From: Alloalcanivorax dieselolei B5
GTDB lineage: Bacteria > Pseudomonadota > Gammaproteobacteria > Pseudomonadales > Alcanivoracaceae
Length of the DNA stretch: 64,000 nt
Assembly: GCF_000300005.1 (NCBI RefSeq)
Contig: NC_018691.1
Span: 1,240,001 to 1,304,000 of the forward strand
Reading direction: 5' to 3'
In this document: positions 12,315 through 24,087 of the stretch, one piece after another
Layout of the letters: the number at the start of each line of letters is the position of its first letter
Numbering within the stretch: the first letter of the stretch is position 1
Program-made: the position numbers and the translations under genes
The notes under the pieces: generated by a model
What the model was told of the DNA's origin: nothing
The model's database searches: none
Seen by the model: the letters and a program-made list of their open reading frames with translations, nothing else

Positions 12315-12447
12315 AAAGCGTTGCGCACCGTTACGCCTGAGAAGGCCATGAAGCCCCTCCAAAAGATGTTGCCCTGTACCCGGTTCCAATGAAAATTCTT
12401 TTCCGAATCAAAGCTCTAAAAGCGAATTGGCGGCCATGTCGGGAGAT

Positions 12448-12462
12448 TGGCACGGCTTCTGC
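12448..12462 (+). promoter_or_regulatory. Sigma-54 (-24/-12) promoter of the monooxygenase-SDR operon
   Basis: TGGCACG-N4-CTGC matches the sigma-54 consensus TGGCACG-N4-TTGC with one mismatch. Transcription would start near 12474, leaving a leader of about 80 nt before the ATG at 12552. The divergent sigma-54 activator gene makes the assignment strong. Confidence 0.75.
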
Positions 12463-12551
12463 TCTTGTCCCCGCATCCGTCCCTGTGTCCGCATCGACCG
12501 CGACGCCGGTGGCGGAAAACGAACAACAACAACGCATGCGAGGAGCAAATC

Positions 12552-14351
12552 ATGAGCAATGCAAAAACGCCGAACCATCAAGTGGAACACTGGCTTGGCG
12601 AATGGGAGCGTACCCTGCGCGGCGACGATCCCACCGCCGCCGCCGAACTGTTCGAGCAAAACGGTTACTGGCGCGATCTGGTGTCCTTCACCTGGAACAT
12701 CAAAACGGTGGAGGGACACGCTGCTCTGCGCGATATGATTGGTGCCACCGTCGCCAACACCCAACCCTTCGACTGGAACCTGGCCGGTGACGCCCGGGAG
12801 GAAAACGGCGTGGTGGAAGCCTGGATTACTTTCCAGACCGCGGTGGGACGAGGCCATGGCCACCTGCGTCTGCGTGAGGGCAAGGCCTGGACTCTGCTGA
12901 CCACGCTAAAGGAACTGCGGGACTATCCGGAGCAACGTAACGATCTGCGGCCCAAGGGCGCCCGCCATGGCGTGTTCAAGAACCGTAAAAGCTGGCTGGA
13001 GGAACGCCGCGAGGAGGAAGCGGAGCTGGGTTACAGTCGCCAGCCTTATTGCGTGGTCATTGGTGGCGGCCAGGGCGGTATCGGTCTGGCGGCGCGTCTG
13101 CGGCAGTTGAATGTCCCCACCATCGTGGTGGAAAAGAACCCGCGCCCCGGGGATTCCTGGCGCAACCGCTACAAGTCCCTGTGTCTGCACGATCCGGTCT
13201 GGTATGACCACATGCCGTACCTGCCGTTTCCTGATCACTGGCCGGTGTTTTCGCCCAAGGACAAGATCGGCGATTGGCTGGAGATGTATACCCGGATCAT
13301 GGAGATCAACTACTGGGGTTCCACTGAATGCACCGGTGCTCGCTATGACGAGCAGGCCGGTGAATGGGTGGTGGACGTGAATCGTGATGGTGAGCGCGTC
13401 ACCTTGCGTCCGCAACAGCTGGTGCTGGCCACCGGCATGTCGGGCATGCCCAATGTGCCGGAAATCCCGGGCATGGAAGACTTTCAGGGCGAGCAGCATC
13501 ACTCCAGCAAGCACCCCGGCGGCGAAGCCTATGCCGGCAAGAAATGCGTGGTGCTGGGCGCCAATAACTCGGCCCACGACATTTGCGCGGCCCTGTGGGA
13601 ACACGGCGCCGACGTCACCATGGTGCAACGCTCTTCCACCCACGTGATCAAATCGGAAACACTGATGGAGCTGGTGCTGGGGCCGTTGTACTCCGAAGAG
13701 GCGGTGAATAACGGTATCACTACGGAAATGGCGGACATGACCTTCGCCTCCATTCCCTACAAAGTGATGCCGCAGTTTCATGTTCCGGTTTATGAACAGG
13801 TGGCGGAGAAGGACGCGGATTTCTACCGCCGTCTGCGCGACGCTGGTTTCATGCTGGACTTCGGCGACGACGGTTCCGGCCTGTTCATGAAATATCTGCG
13901 CCGCGGCTCCGGCTATTACATCGATGTGGGCGCCTGCGAGCTGGTGGCCAACGGTGATATCAAATTGAGAAGCGGTGTCGGCATCGAGCGCATCAATGCG
14001 CATTCGGTGACGCTGACCGACGGTTCCGAGTTGCCGGCGGATCTGATCGTCTACGCCACCGGTTATGGCTCCATGAACGGCTGGGCGGCGCGCATCATTT
14101 CCCAGGAAGTGGCGGACAAAGTGGGTAAATGTTGGGGTATGGGTTCGGACACCACCAAGGACCCGGGCCCCTGGGAAGGCGAATTGCGCAATATGTGGAA
14201 GCCCACCCGGCAGCAGGCGCTCTGGTTCCATGGCGGCAATCTGCACCAGTCCCGGTTTTACTCGCAGTTCCTGGCGCTGCAATTGAAAGCACGGATGGAA
14301 GGCCTGGACACGCCGGTGTATGGCCAGCAGGAAGTGCATCATCTGGCTTGA
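12552..14351 (+). CDS. Flavin-containing monooxygenase with N-terminal NTF2/SnoaL-like domain
   Basis: A 599-residue fusion. Residues ~10-125 look like a SnoaL/NTF2-like alpha+beta barrel (WLGEWERTL...AAELFEQNGYWRDLVSFTW). From about 165 comes a class-B flavoprotein monooxygenase: FAD site GGGQGGIGLAARL (171-183), an FMO fingerprint-like FQGEQHHSSKHP near 311-322, and an NADPH site GANNSAHDI near 337. It probably oxygenates a carbonyl, amine or sulfur compound using NADPH and O2. ATG 12552 was chosen because AGGAG precedes it; a longer open frame upstream lacks coding character and would run through the promoter. It is probably co-transcribed with the SDR downstream. Confidence 0.88.
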   Translation: MSNAKTPNHQVEHWLGEWERTLRGDDPTAAAELFEQNGYWRDLVSFTWNIKTVEGHAALRDMIGATVANTQPFDWNLAGDAREENGVVEAWITFQTAVGRGHGHLRLREGKAWTLLTTLKELRDYPEQRNDLRPKGARHGVFKNRKSWLEERREEEAELGYSRQPYCVVIGGGQGGIGLAARLRQLNVPTIVVEKNPRPGDSWRNRYKSLCLHDPVWYDHMPYLPFPDHWPVFSPKDKIGDWLEMYTRIMEINYWGSTECTGARYDEQAGEWVVDVNRDGERVTLRPQQLVLATGMSGMPNVPEIPGMEDFQGEQHHSSKHPGGEAYAGKKCVVLGANNSAHDICAALWEHGADVTMVQRSSTHVIKSETLMELVLGPLYSEEAVNNGITTEMADMTFASIPYKVMPQFHVPVYEQVAEKDADFYRRLRDAGFMLDFGDDGSGLFMKYLRRGSGYYIDVGACELVANGDIKLRSGVGIERINAHSVTLTDGSELPADLIVYATGYGSMNGWAARIISQEVADKVGKCWGMGSDTTKDPGPWEGELRNMWKPTRQQALWFHGGNLHQSRFYSQFLALQLKARMEGLDTPVYGQQEVHHLA

Positions 14352-14427: not shown

Positions 14428-15204
14428 ATGGAATTGAAAGGAAAAGTCGCCCTGGTCACCGGCGGTGGCCGGGGTATCGGGCAGGGGATTGCCCTGGCGT
14501 TGGCCGGTGCCGGCGCGGACGTGGCGGTGGCGGATCTGGATCTGGCCATTGCCGAGGAAACCGCCGCCAAGGTGGAGGCCGTGGGGCGACGTAGCGTGGC
14601 GATTTCCGTCAACGTAGCGCAGCCGGATTCAGTCCGTGCCATGGTGGAAAAGGTGGAGGCGGAGTTGGGCGGCCTGGACATCGCCGTCAATAACGCCGGC
14701 ATCATCAGTATTCAGTCCATCGAGGAGCTCACCGCCGAGGACTTCGACCGCATCATGGCGGTGAACGCCAAAGGGGTTTTCCTCTGCACCCAGGCCGCGG
14801 TGAGGGTGATGCGGCCGCGACGCTGGGGACGCATCATCAACGTGGCCTCCATCGCCGGCAAGATCGGCTTCCCGGATCTGTCCCATTACACCGCGTCCAA
14901 ATTCGCGGTGATCGGCTTCACCAACGCGGTGGCCAAGGAAGTGGCCCTGGACGGCATCACCGTCAACGCGCTGTGCCCGGGCATCGTTGGCACCGGCATG
15001 TGGCGTGGCGAGGATGGCCTGGCCGGGCGCTGGCGGGAAGAAGGGGAGAGCGAGGAGGCATCCTGGGCCCGTCACCAGAAAACCCTGCTGCCCCAGGGCG
15101 TGGCGCAAACCCCGGAAGATATGGGGCAACTGGCGGTGTACCTGGCCTGTGCCGAACACGTCACCGGCCAGGCTATCGCCGTGGACGGGGGCTGTACGCT
15201 CTAG
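14428..15204 (+). CDS. Short-chain dehydrogenase/reductase (SDR)
   Basis: A 258-residue classical SDR. The cofactor motif TGGGRGIG is at residues 11-18, NNAG at 88-91, and the catalytic triad is Ser141, Tyr154 and Lys158 (YTASK). It probably interconverts an alcohol and a ketone with NAD(P). An acidic residue at the end of the second strand (VADLD) favours NAD(H). It lies 76 bp after the monooxygenase, likely under the same sigma-54 promoter, suggesting an alcohol-to-ketone-to-ester (or reverse) route. Its stop overlaps the convergent guanidine carboxylase stop by 4 bp. Confidence 0.85.
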   Translation: MELKGKVALVTGGGRGIGQGIALALAGAGADVAVADLDLAIAEETAAKVEAVGRRSVAISVNVAQPDSVRAMVEKVEAELGGLDIAVNNAGIISIQSIEELTAEDFDRIMAVNAKGVFLCTQAAVRVMRPRRWGRIINVASIAGKIGFPDLSHYTASKFAVIGFTNAVAKEVALDGITVNALCPGIVGTGMWRGEDGLAGRWREEGESEEASWARHQKTLLPQGVAQTPEDMGQLAVYLACAEHVTGQAIAVDGGCTL

Positions 15205-18200
15205 CCCAGCACCATGATCGCCTGGCCGGCATTGATCTGCTGGCCTTCCTGGCGCGCTATATGCAGCACCTGGCCGGCTTCCGGGGCGGTGACTTCGATC
15301 TCCATCTTCATGGATTCCAGGATTGCCACCACCTGGCCGGCTTCCACATTGTCGCCCTCGGCCACGTTGAGCTGCCAGATGTTGCCGGCGGTGGGGGATT
15401 CCACCGGCGTGCCTTCCGGCAGGCCGTCGCCGTCATCGCCGTCCAGATCCTGTTGCGACTCGAAATGAATCTGGCCGCTTTCCACCCAGCGTTGCAGTTC
15501 CTCGTCAAAGGCCCGGTTCCGCTTCCCGGTGAAGGCGCGGATGCTGTCGTCATTGCGCTGCAGAAAATCCTGATAAGCATTGAGACTGAATGTGGTCTCT
15601 TCCACCTTCAGCGGGTAGTCGCCTTTGGGGAAGTCCCGGCGGATCTGCTGCAGTTCCCCGGCGCTGACTTCGTAAAAACGAATCTGATCGAAAAACCGTA
15701 ACAGCCAGGGTTTGGTGAACGCCTCGGTGGTGCGATAGCGGTTCCACATTTGCAGGGTACGGCCGACGAACTGATACCCCCCCGGGCCTTCCATGCCGTA
15801 CACACATAAATAGGAGCCGCCGATGCCGACGGAGTTTTCCGCGGTCCAGGTGCGTGCCGGATTGTATTTGGTGGTGACCAGCCGGTGACGGGGATCGTAA
15901 GGCGTCGCCACCGGGGCGCCCAGGTAAACATCGCCCAGCCCCATTACCACGTAGCTGGCCTCGAACAGAATCCGCTTCACCTCGTCGATGCTGTCGAGGC
16001 CGTTGATGCGGCGGATGAATTCGATATTGCTCGGACACCAGGGTGCGTCCTTGCGCACCGATTGCATGTATTTCCAGATCGCCAGCCGGCAGGCCTCGTC
16101 GTCCCAGCTCAGTGGCAGATGAACGATACGTGACGGCACTTGCAAATCATCCTGTTGCTGCAAGGACAGTTCCGCTTCCTTCAATAGCGTCAACAGGGTG
16201 TTGCGTGGCAGCTGCCGTGGATCGAAGTGAATCTGCAGGGAACGAATACCCGGGGTCAGTTCCAGCACGCCGTCAATCCGCTGCTGCTCCAGCCACAGCA
16301 TCAGGGCGTGAGCCCGGAAGCGCAGGCGCAAATCCAGTTCCAGCGGGCCGTATTCCACCAGCACATAACGGTCTCCGGCGGCCCGGTAGACCACCTCCAC
16401 ACCGGCCTCTTCCTCCGGCAGGCGGTCCAATACCGGAGTGATCACCGCTGCGGGCTTCACCGCCAGCTCGGGTGCGTCCAGGTGTTGCAGACAGCGGTCC
16501 TGTTCTTCGCACAGGCGGTCCGCGTCTTCCAGGGAGACCGGTTGAAAACGGACTTTATCGCCGGCTTTCAATTGCCCCAGTTTCCACAGGTCGGCTTTGA
16601 TCACCGTGGCCGGGCAGACAAAGCCACCGAGGGACGGACCGTCCGGGCCCAGAATTACCGGCATATCGCCGGTGAAATCAATGGTGCCCACCGCGTAGGC
16701 ATTATCGTGGATGTTGGACGGGTGCATGCCGGCCTCGCCGCCGTCGCTGCGGGCCCATTCCGGTTTCGGCCCCACCAGCCGTACGCCGGTGCGGCTGGAG
16801 TTGTAATGCACCTGCCAATCGCTGGTGAAGAAGGTGGCGATGTCGTTGTCGGTGAAGAAGTCCGGCGCGCCATGGGGGCCGTAGATGACTCGCAGTGTCC
16901 AGGTATCGCGCAGCTTCGGCATCAGCGTTTGCGGCACCTCTACCACGGCTTGCGGTGCCGCGCTGTGCGGGCTCAGATGCAACACATCGCCGGTACGCAG
17001 AGCACGGCCGCCGTGACCACCAAACTGACCCAGCGTAAAGGTGCTGCGTGAACCCAGGTAGGGTTCGCATTGAATGCCACCGTCCACGGCTATGTAAGCG
17101 CGGGCGCCGGTGCCGTTGACCTTGCCCAGCTTCAGCGTCTGGCCGGCCACCACCGTCACCGCCTGGTAGCGGGGCACGGGCTTGCCGTCGAGCGTGGCGC
17201 CCATATCCGCGCCGGTCAGCGCGATCCGGGTGTCGCGGTTGAAGCGCAGGGTCGGGCCATTGAGCGTGCATTCCAGGCCGGCCGCATTATTGTCGTTGCC
17301 AAGCAGCCGGTTCCCGAGCCGGAAGCTCAGGTTATCGAACGGGCCGGACGGCGGCACGCCCACCGGCCAGTAGCCGCCGCGCCCGGGATAATCCTGGACG
17401 GTGGTCAGGGTACCGCCGGCAAGGACATCCAGGGTATCGGGTTGGTAGCGGAAGTCGTTCAGATAGCGGGTGGTCATGCGGCCTTCCCGGAACGCCGGGT
17501 CGGCGAGGATCGCCAGCACATACTGGCGGTTGGTTTCGATGCCTTCCACCAGCGTGTCGCCGAGCGCGTGCTCCAGGGCGGCCAGAGCGCGCTCGCGATC
17601 ATTCTCGTGAACGATGACCTTCGCCAGCATCGGGTCGTACAGCGGGGATACGGTCAGTCCCGCTTCGATCCAATGATCCAGCCGCAACCGCCGGCCGTCC
17701 GCTTCAGGAAAACGCACGGTGGTCAGCAGGCCGGCACTGGGTTGGAAATCCTTATTCGGATCCTCGGCATAGAGACGCACCTGGATCGAATGGCCGCGCG
17801 GCGCGAGATCGCCGGCCAGCCGTTCCAACGGCGGCAGTTCGCCAGCGGCCAGTCGCACCATCCAGGACACCAGATCGACGCCGTACACCTGCTCGGTGAC
17901 ACCGTGTTCCACTTGAAGGCGGGTATTCACTTCAAGGAAATAAAACCGGTTGCTGTCCTGGTCGAGAATAAATTCCACGGTACCGGCGTTGCGGTAGTGC
18001 ACCGCCGACATCAGGCGCCGGGCGGTATCGTGCAAAGTGTGCCGAACGTCTTCGGGAAGATTGGGCGCCGGCGTTTCCTCCACCACTTTTTGATGGCGGC
18101 GTTGGGCGGAGCAGTCACGCTCGCCGAGCGTCACCGCCTGGCCTTTGCCGTCGCCGAACACCTGCACTTCGATGTGGCGGGCGCGCTCGATGTATTTCTC

Positions 18201-18794
18201 CAGGAACACGCCGTCGTTGGAAAAGTTGTTGGCGCTGAGCCGGCGCACCGTATCCCAGGCTTTGCGCAGCGATTCGGCATCGTGGCAAATCTGCATGCCG
18301 ATACCGCCGCCGCCGGCGGTGCTCTTCAACATCACCGGGTAGCCGATGTGGTTGGCGGCGGCCAGCGCTTGTTCCGGATCGGTCAGCAGACCGGTACCCG
18401 GCAGCAGCGGTACCTGATTGTCTTCCGCCAGTTGGCGGGCGGTATGCTTGAGGCCGAAATCCCGCATCTGTTGGGGGGTGGGGCCGATAAAGGCGATGCC
18501 TTGGGCTTCGCAACGCTCGACGAAATCCGGGTTCTCGCTGAGAAAACCATAGCCGGGATGCACCGCGTCGATCTGATGCTCGGCCATCAGCGCCAGTAAT
18601 TTGTCCTGGTCGAGATAGGTGCTGGCGGCGCTGCCGTCGCCCAGACAATAAGCCTCGTCGGCCAGGCTCACGTGACGGGAATCGGCGTCCGCGTCGGCAT
18701 AGACGGCGACGCTGGTGACGCCCAGGGTTTTCAGGGTACGGATGATTCGGGTGGCGATGGCGCCACGGTTGGCGATCAGTACCTTCTTGAACAT
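15201..18794 (-). CDS. Guanidine carboxylase (formerly annotated urea carboxylase)
   Basis: A 1197-residue biotin enzyme. An N-terminal biotin carboxylase (residues ~1-445) has the ATP-grasp glycine loop [9 protein letters not shown]. A KipA/KipI-like carboxyltransferase part (~470-1090, [22 protein letters not shown]...) follows, then a C-terminal biotinyl domain with the biotin lysine at 1163 in ESMKMEI. It carboxylates guanidine (or urea) with ATP and bicarbonate. The guanidine-I riboswitch heading the operon and the two carboxyguanidine deiminase genes just upstream point to guanidine as the true substrate. It is the last gene of the operon; an allophanate hydrolase, the usual next step, is not adjacent. 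Confidence 0.9.
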   Translation of the reverse strand: [1197 protein letters not shown]

Positions 18795-18879
18795 GATGTC
18801 GGCTCTGCGGCGATGGCGGGCCGTCCCGCCGTAAGCATCCGGCTTCCGGGGTCGTCCCCGGCGCCTTCGATTCTGATCG

Positions 18880-19518
18880 TCAGTGCCAGATCAGCACTTC
18901 GATGGGTGTGGGGTTGTAGCCGTTGCACGGGTTATTGAGTTGCGGGCAGTTGGAAATCAGCACGGTGATGTCCATCAGCGCTTTCATTTCCACGTACTTG
19001 CCCGGTGCGGAAATACCGTCAGCGAAGGTGAGGCCACCTTCGGCGGTCACCGGCACGTTCATGAAGAAATTGATGTTGTGGGTGATGTCGCGCTTGCTCA
19101 GCCCGTATTCCTCATGCTCGTTAACGGCCCGCATCCAGCTGTCCCGGCAGGCGTGCATGCAGCGCTTTTCCAGCGCGTAACGCACCGTGTTGCTTTCCGT
19201 GGCGCAGGCGCCGCCGAGGGTATCGTGGCGGCCGCAGGTGTCGGCGGTGATTTCCAGCATCGGCCGGTTGCGGTTGGAGCGCAGCACGGTGCCGGCGGTG
19301 AGGAAGACGTTGCCCTGTTCGCGGATGGTGTCCATGGCGCTGTAGCGCTCGGCGGTGTCCTTGGCATTGAAAAACAGCGTGTCCGCCGCCTGGTTGCCTT
19401 CCAGATCGAGGATGCGCAGGGTCTCGCCTTCCTTAAGCACTTTCAGAAAGTAATCGCCGGCGGGGACGGTATCGCGGAAATGAGCATCGGCGGGGTTCAA
19501 CTGACTTTCCCGAATCAT
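18880..19518 (-). CDS. Carboxyguanidine deiminase subunit (urea-carboxylase-associated protein 2-like)
   Basis: A 212-residue protein of the urea-carboxylase-associated family now known as carboxyguanidine deiminase (CgdA/CgdB). It carries the signature [17 protein letters not shown] near residue 37, followed by [20 protein letters not shown] with clustered Cys/His residues that may bind metal. The paralogous subunit is encoded 9 bp upstream, and the two are known to act as a complex that converts carboxyguanidine to allophanate and ammonia. Which of the pair is named CgdA or CgdB is not settled here, so no symbol is given. Confidence 0.85.
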
Positions 19519-19527
19519 GATGGTCTC

Positions 19528-20244
19528 CTAAAGGCCCAGGTGATAGAGGCGGTTATTTTCGAAAGCACGGGCGTTTTCCGGACGAAAATTCAGACAGTAA
19601 TCGTCCTTTGCCACCGGCGCGGCGGTGAGCATTTCCACCCGCACCGGCTTGCGTGGATAGTCGCTGGCGGGATTGAGCGGGTGCGGGCAGGTGTGCATCA
19701 CCACCAGCGTGTCCATCTCGAAACGCAGGGTGATTTGCGCCCCGGCCCGGGCGGCGCCGGCGTCGAAACGCAGCTGTCCGTTATCGTCGGTGACCACCTT
19801 GCTGAACAGATTGAGATTGGCGGCCAGGTCCCGCTCTCCCAGGCCGTATTTGGCCAGCTCGGTGAGGAAACTGGCGTGGCCGCTCAGGGTCCAGTCGTTG
19901 CGGTATTGCTGGTAATTGTGCTCACCGTATTTCTCCAGCAGGCGGGCATCGTCCAGGTTACCGCAGACGGTGTCGTGCCAGCCGAAGCTGTCGTCGACAA
20001 TGGAGGCGAACACCCGGCCCATGTCGGAGTAGAGACAATTGCCGCGGGTCAGTTTGAAGGTGTGCTGACCCTTGAGGGTGTCCGGGGCGTTGTAACGCTC
20101 CAGTTTTTCTTCCGGGTTGTAGAACAGCATGCCGACGTTGGCGCCGCCTTCCAGGTCGGTAAGACGCAGAGCGGTGCCGCGACGCAGGCGAAACGACCAA
20201 TGGGCGCCGCTGGGCATGGTGTAGTCGTACAGCAGTTCGGTCAT
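19528..20244 (-). CDS. Carboxyguanidine deiminase subunit (urea-carboxylase-associated protein 1-like)
   Basis: A 238-residue paralogue of the next gene. It opens YDYTMPSGAHWSFRLRRGT, then LTDLEGGANVGMLFYNPEEKLERYN and a Cys/His-containing segment (FGWHDTVCGNLDDARL). ATG 20244 was chosen because AAGGAG precedes it and it matches the family N-terminus; a longer frame would overrun the ATPase gene. It is translated 17 bp after the ABC ATPase stop, in the same operon. With its partner it would hydrolyse carboxyguanidine made by the carboxylase. Confidence 0.85.
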   Translation of the reverse strand: MTELLYDYTMPSGAHWSFRLRRGTALRLTDLEGGANVGMLFYNPEEKLERYNAPDTLKGQHTFKLTRGNCLYSDMGRVFASIVDDSFGWHDTVCGNLDDARLLEKYGEHNYQQYRNDWTLSGHASFLTELAKYGLGERDLAANLNLFSKVVTDDNGQLRFDAGAARAGAQITLRFEMDTLVVMHTCPHPLNPASDYPRKPVRVEMLTAAPVAKDDYCLNFRPENARAFENNRLYHLGL

Positions 20245-20261
20245 GAAGGTCTCCTTGTACG

Positions 20262-21044
20262 TTAGGCCATGGTGCGGGCGGTGGCGTCCGCCTGCTCCTG
20301 GATGGCCGTGAGCGTGCCTTTGTCGCAATCCCCCACCGGCAGGTCGTAGGTGATGCGCGCGCCATAGGCGCCGGGGGCTTGCGGGTCCAGGCGGGTCTTG
20401 TCGAACACCCACAGCCGGGTGCCGAGATAAAAGCCCTCGGCGAGGTCATGGGTGACCATAAAGATGGTCAGCCCTTGTTCCCGCCACAGATCCAGCACCA
20501 GGTGGTGCATGTCGCGGCGGATGCCGGGATCGAGCGCGCCGAAGGGTTCGTCCAGCAGCAAAATGCGCGGCCGTTTCATCAATGCCTGGGCGATGGCCAG
20601 GCGTTGCTGCATGCCACCGGACAATTCGTGGGGAAATTTACCGGCAGCCTGGGTCAGCCCCACGGATTCCAGCATTGCCATGGCGGCGTCCTTCAAGGCT
20701 TTGCGTTTGCCGCCGAAGGCGCGGCCGATGAGCTTGTGGCGGTGCAGCTCGTCGGACAGCATGACGTTTTCCAGCGCGCTCAGATGCGGCAGCACCGAAT
20801 AGCGCTGGAACACGATGCCGCGGGTCTCGTCCGGCTGATCCGGGATCGGCGCGCCGTCCAGCAGCAGCTTGCCCCGGGTGGGCGATTCGGTGCCGAGCAG
20901 CATTTTCAGAAAGGTGGTCTTGCCGCAGCCGGAGGCGCCCACCAGGGTGACGAATTCCCCTTCCTGCACCTCGGCGTTGAGGCGTTCCAGCACCACCTGG
21001 TCGCCATACTCCTTCCACAGATTGTTCATTTCGATGATGGCCAT
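20262..21044 (-). CDS. ABC transporter ATP-binding protein (nitrate/taurine type), guanidine uptake
   Basis: A 260-residue ATPase. Walker A is GASGCGKTT near residue 36, the signature is LSGGMQQRLAIAQALM, and Walker B is ILLLDEPFGALD, with the switch histidine in VTHDLAEG. It belongs to the NitT/TauT/SsuB class. It follows the permease gene by 19 bp and energises the importer predicted to bring in guanidine, given the riboswitch at the head of the operon. Confidence 0.88.
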   Translation of the reverse strand: MAIIEMNNLWKEYGDQVVLERLNAEVQEGEFVTLVGASGCGKTTFLKMLLGTESPTRGKLLLDGAPIPDQPDETRGIVFQRYSVLPHLSALENVMLSDELHRHKLIGRAFGGKRKALKDAAMAMLESVGLTQAAGKFPHELSGGMQQRLAIAQALMKRPRILLLDEPFGALDPGIRRDMHHLVLDLWREQGLTIFMVTHDLAEGFYLGTRLWVFDKTRLDPQAPGAYGARITYDLPVGDCDKGTLTAIQEQADATARTMA

Positions 21045-21063
21045 GGGCCTCTCCTCGCTTTAC

Positions 21064-21879
21064 TCAGTGGCTGCCGTGGAACCAGGGGTAACGCCAGCGG
21101 GAATAACGGGCCAGCAGGAAATCGATGGCGAACGCCAGCAGGGTGATCCAGAGCACGTAGGGCAGGATCACATCCATGGACAGGTAGCGGCGCACCAGGA
21201 AAATGCGATAGCCCAGTCCCTCGGTGGCGGCGATGGCTTCGGCGGCGATCAGGAACAGCCAGGCGGATCCCAGTGACAGCCGCACGGCGCTGATCAGGCG
21301 CGGCATGATTTGCGGCCACACCAGACGCAGGATGATCTGCCAGGTGTTGGCGCCGAGCGTCTGCATCTTGATCACCTGCTCGGCGGGGATCTCCTGAGCC
21401 CTTTGCTGCAAGTCGCGGATCAGGAACGGCGTGATGCCGATGATGATCAGCATCACCTTGGCCAGTTCACCGAGGCCGAACAGAATGAACAGGATTGGCA
21501 GGATCGCCATCGGCGGCACCAGCGACAGCCCGGTGATCAGCGGGGACAGACCGGCGCGGGCATAGGGCAGGGTGCCGGTGACAATGCCGAAGACCAGCCC
21601 CATCAAGGCGCTGATGCCGACGCCGATGGCCAGGCGGGTGAGGCTGGCCAGGGTATCCGCCCATAACAGGTACTCGCCGCTGCGCTTGCTGGGTTCGAAC
21701 GCCATGCGTTGAATGGCATCGCCCATGGCGCTGAACGCCGGCAGCAGTTTGTCGTTGGGGTTGGCTTCCAGGCGGGCGTCGGAAGCCAGCAGGTACACCA
21801 CCAGCAGAAGGGCGAAGGGCAACAGCCCCAGCGCCCAGGTGGCGACCCGTCCGGGTTGCCGGTTGATCAACTTCTTCAT
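21064..21879 (-). CDS. ABC transporter permease (nitrate/taurine type), guanidine uptake
   Basis: A 271-residue inner-membrane permease with about six hydrophobic segments. The EAA-type cytoplasmic loop is seen as MQTLGANTWQIILRLVWPQIMPRL, which contacts the ATPase. ATG 21879 was chosen because CAGGAG lies 6 nt upstream and the protein then starts with a basic stretch before the first membrane helix (MKKLINRQPGRVATWALGLL). It sits between the binding-protein and ATPase genes of the guanidine operon. Confidence 0.88.
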   Translation of the reverse strand: MKKLINRQPGRVATWALGLLPFALLLVVYLLASDARLEANPNDKLLPAFSAMGDAIQRMAFEPSKRSGEYLLWADTLASLTRLAIGVGISALMGLVFGIVTGTLPYARAGLSPLITGLSLVPPMAILPILFILFGLGELAKVMLIIIGITPFLIRDLQQRAQEIPAEQVIKMQTLGANTWQIILRLVWPQIMPRLISAVRLSLGSAWLFLIAAEAIAATEGLGYRIFLVRRYLSMDVILPYVLWITLLAFAIDFLLARYSRWRYPWFHGSH

Positions 21880-21918
21880 GGCGACTCCTGTGGGCGGTGA
21901 CAAGGCACGAGGGGCCGG

Positions 21919-22965
21919 TTACAGCTCACCCTCGGCGGCCATCGTCATGTAGGTCGGGTCAAAGCGCAGTTTGACGTTGCCGTTGTTGCCGTAGACGCCG
22001 GCGGGGGTTTCCACGCCAACGAAGCCGGCATCCGGGGCGCCTTCGCCGAGCAGACCGTGGTCAAAAGAGAATTCCGCCACTTTCTGCATGGTGTCCTTCA
22101 GCGCCGGGCTGTTGGTGAAGGTGACCGCGTCCTCGGCTTTGTCGAACAGGCGGGTGGCGTCGAGCTGCATCCGCAGGCCGTCCAGGTCGGTGGCGGCGAC
22201 ATTGGCCAGATGCTGGCGGAAGCCGCTGTCATTGAGGTGCCCCATGATTTCGTACCAGGCGCCGGTGAGCGCTTTGCCCAGGGCTGGATTGGCTTTCAGG
22301 GTGTCGGTGTTCACCACCATCAGGTCGATGATTTCGCCGGGAATTTTGGAAGAGTCGAACACCAGATTGGCTTCCGGAGACTCCTTGATTGTGCCCAGCA
22401 GCGGATTCCAGGTGGCCAGGGCGGTTACGTCGGGGGTATTGAAAGCGGATACCAGATCGGCGTCGGCGGTGTTGACCACGGTGATGTCGCGCTCGCTGAG
22501 TCCCACGCTGTCCAGCGCCCGGGCCAGCAGGTAGTGGGAGACGGACAGTTCCACCAGATTGACGCGACGGCCCTTGATGGCCTCGAGTTTATCGGCGTCC
22601 TTGAGCACGATGCCGTCGTTGCCGTTGGAGAAGTCACCAACGATCAGCGCGGTGCTGTCGACGCCGCCGGCGGCGGGGATGGTCAGGGCGTCCATGTTGG
22701 TCATGGTGCAACCGTCGAACTGGCCGGCGGTGTACTGGTTGATGGACTCGATGTAGTCGTTGATCTGTACCACTTCGATGTCGATGTCGTACTTGTCCGC
22801 CCATTTGTCGACGATGCCTTCGGCGGCGCCGTAGTCCCAGGGCAGCCAGCCCACGTAGATGGACCAGCAGACCTTGAAACTGTCCCGGGCCTGGGCCTGG
22901 ACAGGGGTGGCGAGCGTCAGGGCGAGCAGGGCGGTGGTGCAGACGGTGGTGAGCAAACGGGTCAT
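21919..22965 (-). CDS. ABC transporter substrate-binding protein, guanidine uptake
   Basis: A 348-residue periplasmic protein with a clear signal peptide, probably cut after VQAQA around residue 26. The mature part is of the NMT1/TauA class (CWSIYVGWLPWDYGAAEGIVDKWADKY), in which the aromatic-rich SIYVGWLPW stretch likely lines the pocket. It is the first gene of the operon. AGGAGG precedes the ATG by 6 nt, and the leader carries the guanidine-I riboswitch. Confidence 0.9.
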   Translation of the reverse strand: MTRLLTTVCTTALLALTLATPVQAQARDSFKVCWSIYVGWLPWDYGAAEGIVDKWADKYDIDIEVVQINDYIESINQYTAGQFDGCTMTNMDALTIPAAGGVDSTALIVGDFSNGNDGIVLKDADKLEAIKGRRVNLVELSVSHYLLARALDSVGLSERDITVVNTADADLVSAFNTPDVTALATWNPLLGTIKESPEANLVFDSSKIPGEIIDLMVVNTDTLKANPALGKALTGAWYEIMGHLNDSGFRQHLANVAATDLDGLRMQLDATRLFDKAEDAVTFTNSPALKDTMQKVAEFSFDHGLLGEGAPDAGFVGVETPAGVYGNNGNVKLRFDPTYMTMAAEGEL

Positions 22966-23017
22966 GTCGGACCTCCTGGGTTACGGACGAAGAGGAATCC
23001 AATGACAGGTGTCATCG

Positions 23018-23110
23018 TGTCCTCCCGGGCTTTTGTCCCGCCGTGTAACCTTCAGCGAAGGTCGACTGCTCTCGGACCAGGCATCGGCGGCGCCGATCGG
23101 AACCCTAGCG
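23018..23110 (-). promoter_or_regulatory. Guanidine-I riboswitch (ykkC class)
   Basis: Read on the minus strand, the leader contains the conserved blocks of this class in order: CTAGGGTTCCG, GGTCCGAGAGC, ACACGGCGGGACAAAAG and CCCGGGAGGA. The first two are separated by a hairpin arm (CGGCGCCGCCG) and the second and third by CCTTCGCTGAAGG. The element ends about 50 nt before the start codon of the binding-protein gene, and a small hairpin (ATGACA-CC-TGTCAT, 23002-23015) lies between. It would switch the operon on when guanidine is bound. Confidence 0.93.
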
Positions 23111-23316
23111 GTCTATTGGAAGCAAATTGTCGAGTGTGGATGGCCACCGGCCATTCGATTCCTCACGCCGGTATACCAGCAAGAGCGGTGCCAAATCGGT
23201 GCAGGCCAGGGATTGCGGGGGATCGGGGGAGGAAAAACGGGGTGGAGGGCCTGCGGATGGGGCGGGCATGGCGCCAGTTTGGTGCGCCATGCCCGAAGGT
23301 GGTGCATTCAGGGGCG

Positions 23317-24087
23317 TCAGGGTGTGCTATCGAGAAACTCCGTCAGTGCCCGCCAGCTCTCCCGGTCGGCTTCGGCGTCGTAGGCCAGGGGCATGTCGAA
23401 ACGCTGACCAAACTGATCCGCCTCGGGATTGGTGAAGCCGTGCTTGGCGTCGGGGAAGCTGAGCAGCTGATATTCCGCGCCGGCGTTGTTCAGTTCCTCC
23501 ACCAGTGCCGAGACCTGCTCCGGTGGCACCATGGGGTCGGCCTGCCCGGTGGCCACCAGGATGCGTGCCTTGATGTCGCCGGGACCCGCTGGATTTTGCG
23601 TCGCCAGGGTGCCGTGGAAGCTGGCCACGCCGGCCAGATCATTGCCCCCGCGGGCCTGCTCCAGCACCACGCCGCCACCGAAACAGTAGCCCACCGCGTA
23701 AATCCGGTTGTCATCCACATACTGCATCTTGCGCAGCAGCGTCTTGGCGGCATTGAAGCGGGCGGTCATCTTTTCCGGCTCGGCCAGGGCCTGCTCCATG
23801 AACGCCTTGGCGTCCTTGGGGTGCTGCGCCACTTTTTCGTTGTACATGTCCACGGCCAGTGCCACGTAGCCTTTTGCGGCCAGTTGCCGACTCCGGTTAC
23901 GGATGTAGTTGTTCAGGCCCCACCATTCGTGGACCACGATGACGCCGGCGGTGACCCGCTCCTGATCCTCGTCCATGTACAGTACCCCGGTGCCGACGCC
24001 ACCGGGCAGGTTCACTTTCTGTTCAATGATATCGGCCTGGGCCAGGGAACCGAGCAGCAGCAGGCTCAGCGCGATCAGGCGGGTCAT
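23317..24087 (-). CDS. Dienelactone hydrolase family protein, exported
   Basis: A 256-residue alpha/beta hydrolase with a signal peptide (MTRLIALSLLLLGSLAQA). The catalytic triad is Cys135 (GYCFGGG), Asp184 and His216 (KHGFTNP), and the HEWWG motif at 53-57 supplies the conserved Glu. True dienelactone hydrolases are cytoplasmic; the exported type acts on unknown ester or lactone substrates in the periplasm. Its start overlaps the stop of the upstream 116-residue gene by 4 bp (ATGA), so the two are translationally coupled. Confidence 0.85.
   Translation of the reverse strand: MTRLIALSLLLLGSLAQADIIEQKVNLPGGVGTGVLYMDEDQERVTAGVIVVHEWWGLNNYIRNRSRQLAAKGYVALAVDMYNEKVAQHPKDAKAFMEQALAEPEKMTARFNAAKTLLRKMQYVDDNRIYAVGYCFGGGVVLEQARGGNDLAGVASFHGTLATQNPAGPGDIKARILVATGQADPMVPPEQVSALVEELNNAGAEYQLLSFPDAKHGFTNPEADQFGQRFDMPLAYDAEADRESWRALTEFLDSTP

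What the first reader, a model, noticed from the sequence alone, without database searches (positions are those of the whole stretch)
15201..23110. Guanidine-I riboswitch shows that the 'urea carboxylase' operon is for guanidine
The leader contains all conserved blocks of the guanidine-I class (CTAGGGTTCCG, GGTCCGAGAGC, ACACGGCGGGACAAAAG, CCCGGGAGGA). It is followed by an ABC importer, both carboxyguanidine deiminase subunits and the carboxylase. Automatic annotation would call this urea metabolism.
Basis: partly seen in the sequence, partly recalled or inferred. Interest (0 to 1): 0.6.

Follow-up and report, generated by a model that had tools for sequence, protein, structure and literature searches.

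The report
Guanidine-use operon with two riboswitches
A marine oil-degrading bacterium carries a nitrogen-scavenging operon that software labels 'urea' but that looks built for guanidine and carries two different guanidine-sensing RNAs; the operon type is already known, while the way its first switch and its promoter seem to work is the part worth testing.

Summary
Confirmed, and larger than reported. Window 23119-23020(-) is a Guanidine-I aptamer (RF00442, 89.9 bits). It heads an ABC importer, both carboxyguanidine deiminase subunits and a carboxylase carrying the aspartate that marks guanidine carboxylases (D706). A second carboxylase in the genome has the urea-type asparagine. Guanidine-I plus internal Guanidine-II in one operon is published for Vreelandella and enterobacteria: a new member of a known kind.

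Three points go beyond the passages I read. (1) The 5' strand of aptamer helix P2 covaries with the first gene's Shine-Dalgarno region (109 usable of 149 leaders): probably a translational ON switch, not the presumed terminator. (2) Near-consensus sigma-54 sites precede 102 of 123 leaders examined, with NtrC-like sites: a nitrogen-starvation AND guanidine gate. (3) The operon lacks allophanate hydrolase; the only one above cut-off lies at the unlinked urea locus. Four of five one-carboxylase Alcanivorax relatives keep it. None of this is shown by experiment.

The parts
23290..23306 (-). NtrC-like site TGCACCACCTTCGGGCA (10 of 12 consensus positions)
   Evidence: consensus recalled. Over 72 regions with a sigma-54 match, 49 score 9 or more (6.8 expected from shuffles) and 24 score 10 or more (0.7 expected).
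23270..23286 (-). Second NtrC-like site CGCACCAAACTGGCGCC (9 of 12, scored by eye)
   Evidence: Read from the sequence; not separately tested.
23178..23193 (-). Sigma-54 promoter core TGGCAC-N5-TTGCT (11 of 11); start of transcription inferred near 23167
   Evidence: 102 of 123 distinct upstream regions score 9 or more (1.3 expected), 85 score 10 or more (0.15 expected); coordinates.
23020..23119 (-). Guanidine-I aptamer
   Evidence: RF00442, 89.9 bits, E 7.7e-15.
23057..23066 (-). P2 5' strand GTCGACCTTC, proposed switching strand that masks the Shine-Dalgarno region
22966..22977 (-). Shine-Dalgarno region AGGAGGTCCGAC of the first gene, complementary to the P2 5' strand with one bulged base
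22979..22986 (-). CCGTAACC, complementary to the P2 3' strand plus ACACGG (GGTTACACGG) with a gap
   Evidence: Fold. CCGTGT or CGTGTA stands in 22 of 140 tails, 2.3 expected; but the window's own P2-3' duplex is not better than with other tails.
21919..22965 (-). Substrate-binding protein of an ABC importer (TIGR03427)
21064..21903 (-). ABC permease
20262..21044 (-). ABC ATPase
19528..20250 (-). Carboxyguanidine deiminase subunit CgdA (UAAP1, TIGR03425)
18880..19518 (-). Carboxyguanidine deiminase subunit CgdB (UAAP2, TIGR03424)
18816..18863 (-). Internal Guanidine-II riboswitch: CCGGGG-ACGA-CCCCGG and GGCGGG-ACGG-CCCGCC, 20 nt before the carboxylase ATG by the scan
   Evidence: RF01068, 39.3 bits; two ACGR hairpins in 45 of 57 relatives' loci before the carboxylase.
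15201..18794 (-). Guanidine carboxylase (annotated urea carboxylase), D706 and D955

Best explanation
A guanidine-assimilation operon of Alloalcanivorax. Imported guanidine is carboxylated (gca), deiminated to allophanate (cgdAB), and the allophanate is hydrolysed by an enzyme encoded elsewhere, at the urea locus. Transcription probably starts at a sigma-54 promoter activated by NtrC when nitrogen is short. Without guanidine, the 5' strand of aptamer helix P2 pairs with the Shine-Dalgarno region of the first gene and blocks translation; guanidine binding forms P2 and frees it. The internal Guanidine-II riboswitch separately gates translation of the costly carboxylase. Shown by sequence: both riboswitch matches, gene content, residues, promoter motif and P2/Shine-Dalgarno covariation. 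Inferred: ligand binding, substrates, the direction of each switch, sigma-54/NtrC use, and the shared hydrolase.
For: Guanidine-I and Guanidine-II over their gathering scores, nowhere else in the genome except a Guanidine-II at 1685645-1685702. D706/D955; paralog with N beside allophanate hydrolase and urt-like genes, no guanidine riboswitch over gathering there. Two ACGR hairpins upstream of gca in 45 of 57 loci, against 0 to 2 before six other genes and 0.0 expected from shuffles. P2/Shine-Dalgarno: own pairs beat permuted pairs, z -8.5 over 128 leaders with the P1 hairpin control at z 0.7; z -3.5, p 0.0008 among 26 leaders under 65% identity; flank pairs beyond the CCT/AGG core 4.08 against 2.96, z 12.2, n 109, and z 7.4 among 37 leaders under 70% identity. 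Forcing P2 raises Shine-Dalgarno openness from 0.22 to 0.45 over 110 leaders; forcing the P1 hairpin does not (0.22). No excess of TTTT: 16 of 140, 17.2 expected. Sigma-54 and NtrC-like sites. Hydrolase.
Against: No experiment. The leader is not unusually stable (z -1.28, 18 of 200 shuffles as stable), nor the Guanidine-II region (z -0.67, 48 of 200). Reversed P2 also scores slightly (z -2.6). The covariation is weak outside the order (12 leaders of other gammaproteobacterial orders: P2 5' p 0.10, P2 3' p 0.0002) and absent in 11 leaders of other classes (p 0.54). 9 of those 12 have TTTT in the tail, so terminators may act there (counted). The window's Shine-Dalgarno openness rises only from 0.11 to 0.26. 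One relative, G758, has the operon but no allophanate hydrolase match.
Confidence: 0.85

Rival explanations
1. The operon is as above, but Guanidine-I works by transcription attenuation (an intrinsic or Rho-dependent terminator), as presumed in print, and the P2/Shine-Dalgarno complementarity is secondary.
For: PMC12186494 and PMC12508155 (passages) describe Guanidine-I as usually or presumably transcriptional. The pattern scan calls a weak terminator-like hairpin at 23017-23000. The hairpin ATGAC..GTCAT-TTGGATTCCTC is conserved in 20 distinct Alcanivorax-type leaders. 9 of 12 leaders from other gammaproteobacterial orders have TTTT.
Against: Terminator-like sites in the region are no more than in shuffles (6 against a mean of 6.5). 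No TTTT excess in 140 leaders. Pairing of the aptamer 3' end with the tail is near chance (59 of 140 with 5 or more, 37% in shuffles). The strong P2/Shine-Dalgarno covariation stays unexplained.
Confidence: 0.25
2. The carboxylase and importer serve urea, and the riboswitch only reports guanidine as a side signal.
For: Curated family names say urea.
Against: Asp at the 1330 position; both deiminase subunits present; a separate urea-type carboxylase with allophanate hydrolase and urt-like genes in the same genome.
Confidence: 0.03
3. The two riboswitches divide ligands: Guanidine-I for guanidine alone, Guanidine-II also for methylguanidine, so the carboxylase responds to more substrates than the importer.
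For: Reported for the V. boliviensis pair (PMC12508155 passages).
Against: Not tested for this sequence. No extra gene lies between gca and the convergent SDR gene; mgdH and mgdL were not searched for elsewhere.
Confidence: 0.3

Closest known systems
Guanidine carboxylase operon of Vreelandella boliviensis (PMC12508155, abstract and passages)
   Same: Guanidine-I at the head, Guanidine-II between cgdB and gca, importer, cgdA/B and gca.
   Different: There mgdH, mgdL and atzF follow gca; here gca is last, overlaps a convergent SDR gene by 4 bases, and atzF is unlinked.
Enterobacterial guanidine operons (Raoultella, Erwinia, Klebsiella), as described in the review PMC12186494 (passages)
   Same: Importer and deiminase under Guanidine-I, carboxylase under Guanidine-II.
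   Different: There allophanate hydrolase follows the carboxylase under Guanidine-II.
Guanidine-I riboswitch of Alcanivorax dieselolei B-5 (PMC9788540, abstract, outline and section 2.7.1 read)
   Same: Very likely the same element: Guanidine-I before a gene called urtA, seen as an expressed leader; Guanidine-II before a SugE-like gene.
   Different: The section reports no Guanidine-II before the carboxylase and infers export; Table S10 was not seen.
Ectopseudomonas guguanensis G3 (PMC13296017, passages)
   Same: A second uca gene with Guanidine-I, apart from an atzF-uca pair: the same split of guanidine and urea loci.
   Different: No Guanidine-II, sigma-54 or Shine-Dalgarno mechanism in the passages seen.

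Membership tests
Guanidine-I riboswitch | Match to the curated covariance model | tested here: met
   89.9 bits against 63, full length.
Guanidine-I riboswitch | Guanidine binding | not testable with these tools
   Needs in-line probing or ITC.
Guanidine-I with intrinsic terminator (the mechanism usually given for the class; not a defining trait of the aptamer) | G+C hairpin followed by a U-run | tested here: not met
   No TTTT in the window's 60-nt tail; 16 of 140 leaders against 17.2 expected; only a weak hairpin call.
Guanidine-II riboswitch | Covariance-model match | tested here: met
   39.3 bits against 32.
Guanidine-II riboswitch | Two G+C hairpins with ACGR loops near a ribosome-binding site | tested here: met
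   ACGA and ACGG loops, 20 nt before the ATG; definition from PMC5486947 passages.
Guanidine-II riboswitch | Guanidine binding | not testable with these tools
   -
Guanidine carboxylase | Urea-carboxylase family with Asp at K. lactis 1330 and 1584 | tested here: met
   D706 and D955 (criteria).
Guanidine carboxylase | Activity on guanidine above urea | not testable with these tools
   -
Urea carboxylase | Asn at K. lactis 1330 | tested here: not met
   D in the window protein; N in the paralog of the same genome.
Carboxyguanidine deiminase | Both subunits (UAAP1 and UAAP2 families) | tested here: met
   TIGR03425 and TIGR03424 over their cut-offs.
Complete guanidine-carboxylase operon | Allophanate hydrolase in the operon | tested here: not met
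   Only hit over cut-off is at 782582-784231, the operon at 1255201-1263119.

The most novel reading that the evidence does not exclude
In the window's order Guanidine-I is a translational switch whose own aptamer strand (P2 5') doubles as an anti-Shine-Dalgarno sequence, set downstream of a sigma-54/NtrC promoter and upstream of a second, different guanidine switch: a three-layer gate (nitrogen shortage, guanidine, guanidine) on one operon, with allophanate hydrolase supplied by a separate locus that also carries a sigma-54-like site but no guanidine riboswitch.
Probability: 0.55. Interest if true: 0.5.

Novelty: new member of a known kind. Interest (0 to 1): 0.36.

Why it matters
The operon itself is an instance of a published system and corrects annotation in a model alkane degrader. 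If the covariation result holds, the account of Guanidine-I as a transcription switch would not apply to a large group of gammaproteobacterial operons. The sigma-54 sites would tie guanidine use to general nitrogen starvation, bearing on whether these bacteria treat guanidine as food or as poison. The missing allophanate hydrolase predicts that guanidine growth depends on a gene of the urea locus.

Tried and rejected
Leader peptide: a 17-codon frame (MTPVIGFLFVRNPGGPT) starts right after the aptamer and its stop overlaps the SBP start codon; rejected because relatives change the frame by loop-length differences. Aptamer 3' end pairing with the tail as a general OFF stem: near chance over 140 leaders, though conserved in the 20 Alcanivorax-type leaders. 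My first regular expression for the 1330 residue missed 43 of 57 proteins and was replaced by an alignment. The first parser of leaders outside the order lost 19 of 27; a looser one read 23 of 27, which weakened the P2 5' result there from p 0.014 (n 8) to p 0.10 (n 12 of other gammaproteobacterial orders). No structure prediction was run.

Rows dropped before counts: one search used 56 riboswitch-led loci of 61 (window plus 60); L070, L090, L091, L094 and L103 dropped (no carboxylase hit, a cut contig, or best aligned piece of 900 columns or less). One search used 109 of 149 leaders (start codon, CCT in P2 and AGG near the start required). Searches used the 128 distinct leaders that my parser read. 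One search tested NtrC sites only where a sigma-54 match of 9 or more was found (72), and sigma-54 outside the order on 12 loci. The sigma-54 and NtrC shuffles keep base composition only.

Paper searches bearing on novelty: in an open-licence library; for only 20 of 313, 12 of 446 and 15 of 648 papers were listed. None of the listings or passages I saw describes a translational Guanidine-I or a sigma-54 promoter before a guanidine riboswitch; subscription papers, including the original Guanidine-I report (not held), were not seen.
Full report
OBSERVATION. The genes behind it are those described: substrate-binding protein, permease, ATPase, both UAAP/carboxyguanidine deiminase subunits, and a carboxylase that NCBIfam names urea carboxylase. 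A second riboswitch of another class, Guanidine-II (RF01068, 39.3 bits against 32), lies at 18863-18816 between cgdB and the carboxylase gene. The genome has one Guanidine-I and two Guanidine-II matches; the other Guanidine-II, at 1685645-1685702, lies before a small SugE-like frame, named by eye.

ORGANISM. The substrate-binding protein is 99% identical to that of Alloalcanivorax xenomutans JC109. The genome is one contig of 4,928,223 bases. That fits A. dieselolei B5 from recall, but the strain was not established by a call.

SUBSTRATE. PMC11410670 (passages) separates guanidine from urea carboxylases by Asp at K. lactis position 1330, with Asp at 1584 conserved. Through the alignment to 3va7/5i8i these are D706 and D955 here. 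All 56 riboswitch-led carboxylases compared (of 61 loci) have D at 1330; the genome's second carboxylase, 56% identical, has N. That paralog lies next to the only allophanate hydrolase over cut-off, urt-like transporter genes, and no guanidine riboswitch over gathering score. The genome thus holds a guanidine-type and a urea-type enzyme side by side.

THE INTERNAL GUANIDINE-II. Two hairpins with ACGR loops stand within 160 nt before the carboxylase start in 45 of 57 loci; the same scan before six other genes of these loci gives 0 of 54, 0 of 53, 0 of 57, 2 of 56, 0 of 56 and 0 of 29, and shuffles give 0.0. In the family listing all 17 loci show them, with stems that differ in sequence but stay paired. 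By Rfam alone, 69 of 110 Guanidine-I genomes in a sample of 390 of the order have a Guanidine-II downstream on the same strand within 9 kb, and 16 of 17 in the family (fast filters, so lower bounds). The arrangement is published: V. boliviensis (PMC12508155) and enterobacteria (PMC12186494). For Alcanivorax, PMC9788540 section 2.7.1 reports only the Guanidine-I and the sugE Guanidine-II, and reads the operon as export.

HOW GUANIDINE-I PROBABLY ACTS. Both papers above give transcription (a terminator) as the usual or presumed mechanism. The window's tail has no TTTT, and over 140 distinct leaders TTTT occurs in 16 (17.2 expected). In the fold of the window leader without ligand, P2 is opened: its 5' strand GUCGACCUUC pairs with AGGAGGUCCGAC, the Shine-Dalgarno region of the first gene, and its 3' strand pairs with CCGUAACC just upstream (the fold as a whole is not significantly stable, z -1.28). 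A leader's own P2 5' strand pairs better with its own tail than with other leaders' tails: z -8.5, 0 of 2000 permutations, n 128; P2 3' strand z -7.1. Controls: P1 hairpin z 0.7, upstream sequence z -1.5, reversed P2 z -2.6. It also pairs better with the first gene's start region than with those of five other genes of the same loci, in 66 to 78% of cases. Among divergent leaders the signal stays: z -3.5, p 0.0008 for 26 leaders under 65% identity. The best duplex covers positions -10 to -7 from the start in about 80% of 112 leaders. Counting only pairs beyond the CCT/AGG core, own pairs exceed permuted ones 4.08 to 2.96 (z 12.2, n 109 of 149), and z 7.4 for 37 leaders under 70% identity, with pairs such as GACCTTCAGAG/CTCTGGAGGTT, GACCTTCGAAG/CTTCGGAGGTT and GGCCTTTTCC/GGAAAAGGCC. 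Forcing P2 to form raises the mean openness of the Shine-Dalgarno region from 0.22 to 0.45 in 110 leaders, while forcing the P1 hairpin leaves it at 0.22. Since ligand-bound Guanidine-I needs P2, guanidine would switch translation on. Against: in the window itself the rise is only 0.11 to 0.26; its P2-3' duplex is not better than with other leaders' tails (rank 0.51); 21 new leaders of the order give p 0.014; 12 leaders of other gammaproteobacterial orders give p 0.10 for the 5' strand and 0.0002 for the 3' strand; 11 leaders of other classes give p 0.54 and none of them has CCTY in the P2 5' strand, against 134 of 149 in the order. So the proposed mechanism belongs to the window's order and perhaps neighbours, not to the class at large; enterobacterial-type leaders may combine it with terminators.

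PROMOTER. TGGCACCGCTCTTGCT, a full sigma-54 core match, lies at 23193-23178. Of 123 distinct regions upstream of Guanidine-I, 102 score 9 or more of 11 and 85 score 10 or more (1.3 and 0.15 expected from shuffles; reverse strand 1 and 0). Outside the order 10 of 12 examined score 10 or more, three of them only 20-22 nt before the aptamer core, which is tight. NtrC-like sites upstream: 49 of 72 score 9 or more of 12 (6.8 expected), 24 score 10 or more (0.7 expected). The region upstream of allophanate hydrolase at the urea locus also has an 11 of 11 sigma-54 match; the sugE Guanidine-II does not (best 8). Co-induction by nitrogen shortage would explain how a hydrolase without a riboswitch is available to this operon. 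Use of sigma-54 and NtrC is inferred.

THE MISSING HYDROLASE. The operon ends at the carboxylase, whose stop overlaps a convergent SDR gene by 4 bases. In 13 of 13 genomes of the genus there are two carboxylases and an allophanate hydrolase beside the non-riboswitch one (one genome has a further shorter match). In the sister genus g4, 5 of 17 genomes have a single carboxylase; four of these keep allophanate hydrolase, with the carboxylase missing between it and a GntR-like gene (named by eye), where G243 has hydrolase-carboxylase-GntR. The remaining carboxylase is riboswitch-led in G282 and G223; this was not checked for G757 and G767. The fifth, G758, has the operon with both riboswitches but no hydrolase match, against the rule.

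VERDICT. A real and correctly read guanidine operon, of a published kind, with an overlooked second riboswitch. Its control may hold a new variant: a translational Guanidine-I behind a sigma-54 promoter. Confidence 0.85 covers the operon reading; I put the Shine-Dalgarno mechanism near 0.6 and the sigma-54 promoter near 0.8.

Noticed in passing
G000:C1:1685645-1685702 (L002 1501-1558, L021 4646-4703): A second Guanidine-II riboswitch (32.7 bits, just over gathering) before a small SugE/Gdx-like frame, so the genome probably has guanidine import and export both under guanidine riboswitches.
   Followed up: partly
G000:C1:778910-784231 (L020): Urea-type carboxylase paralog with allophanate hydrolase, a GntR-like gene and urt-like genes; sigma-54-like site upstream of the hydrolase.
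   Followed up: yes
L277 (G758:C1:1569000-1583000): An Alcanivorax relative with the guanidine operon and both riboswitches but no allophanate hydrolase match in the genome: how would it finish allophanate?
   Followed up: partly
L073, L074, L077, L099, L102: Several loci carry two or three Guanidine-I cores in tandem, each before its own gene or gene group.
   Followed up: no
window 23317-24087 (-): A dienelactone-hydrolase-like gene (weak match to a YghX-family model, below cut-off) directly upstream of the leader on the same strand; a similar-looking gene precedes the operon in L277 (by eye).
   Followed up: no
window 12447-14351 (+) and 14428-15204 (+): A flavin monooxygenase-like protein with an N-terminal extension and an SDR gene that converges on the carboxylase with a 4-base overlap.
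   Followed up: no
window 23017-22991 (-): Hairpin ATGAC..GTCAT followed by TTGGATTCCTC, conserved in 20 distinct Alcanivorax-type leaders with varying loop length; its role is not settled.
   Followed up: partly
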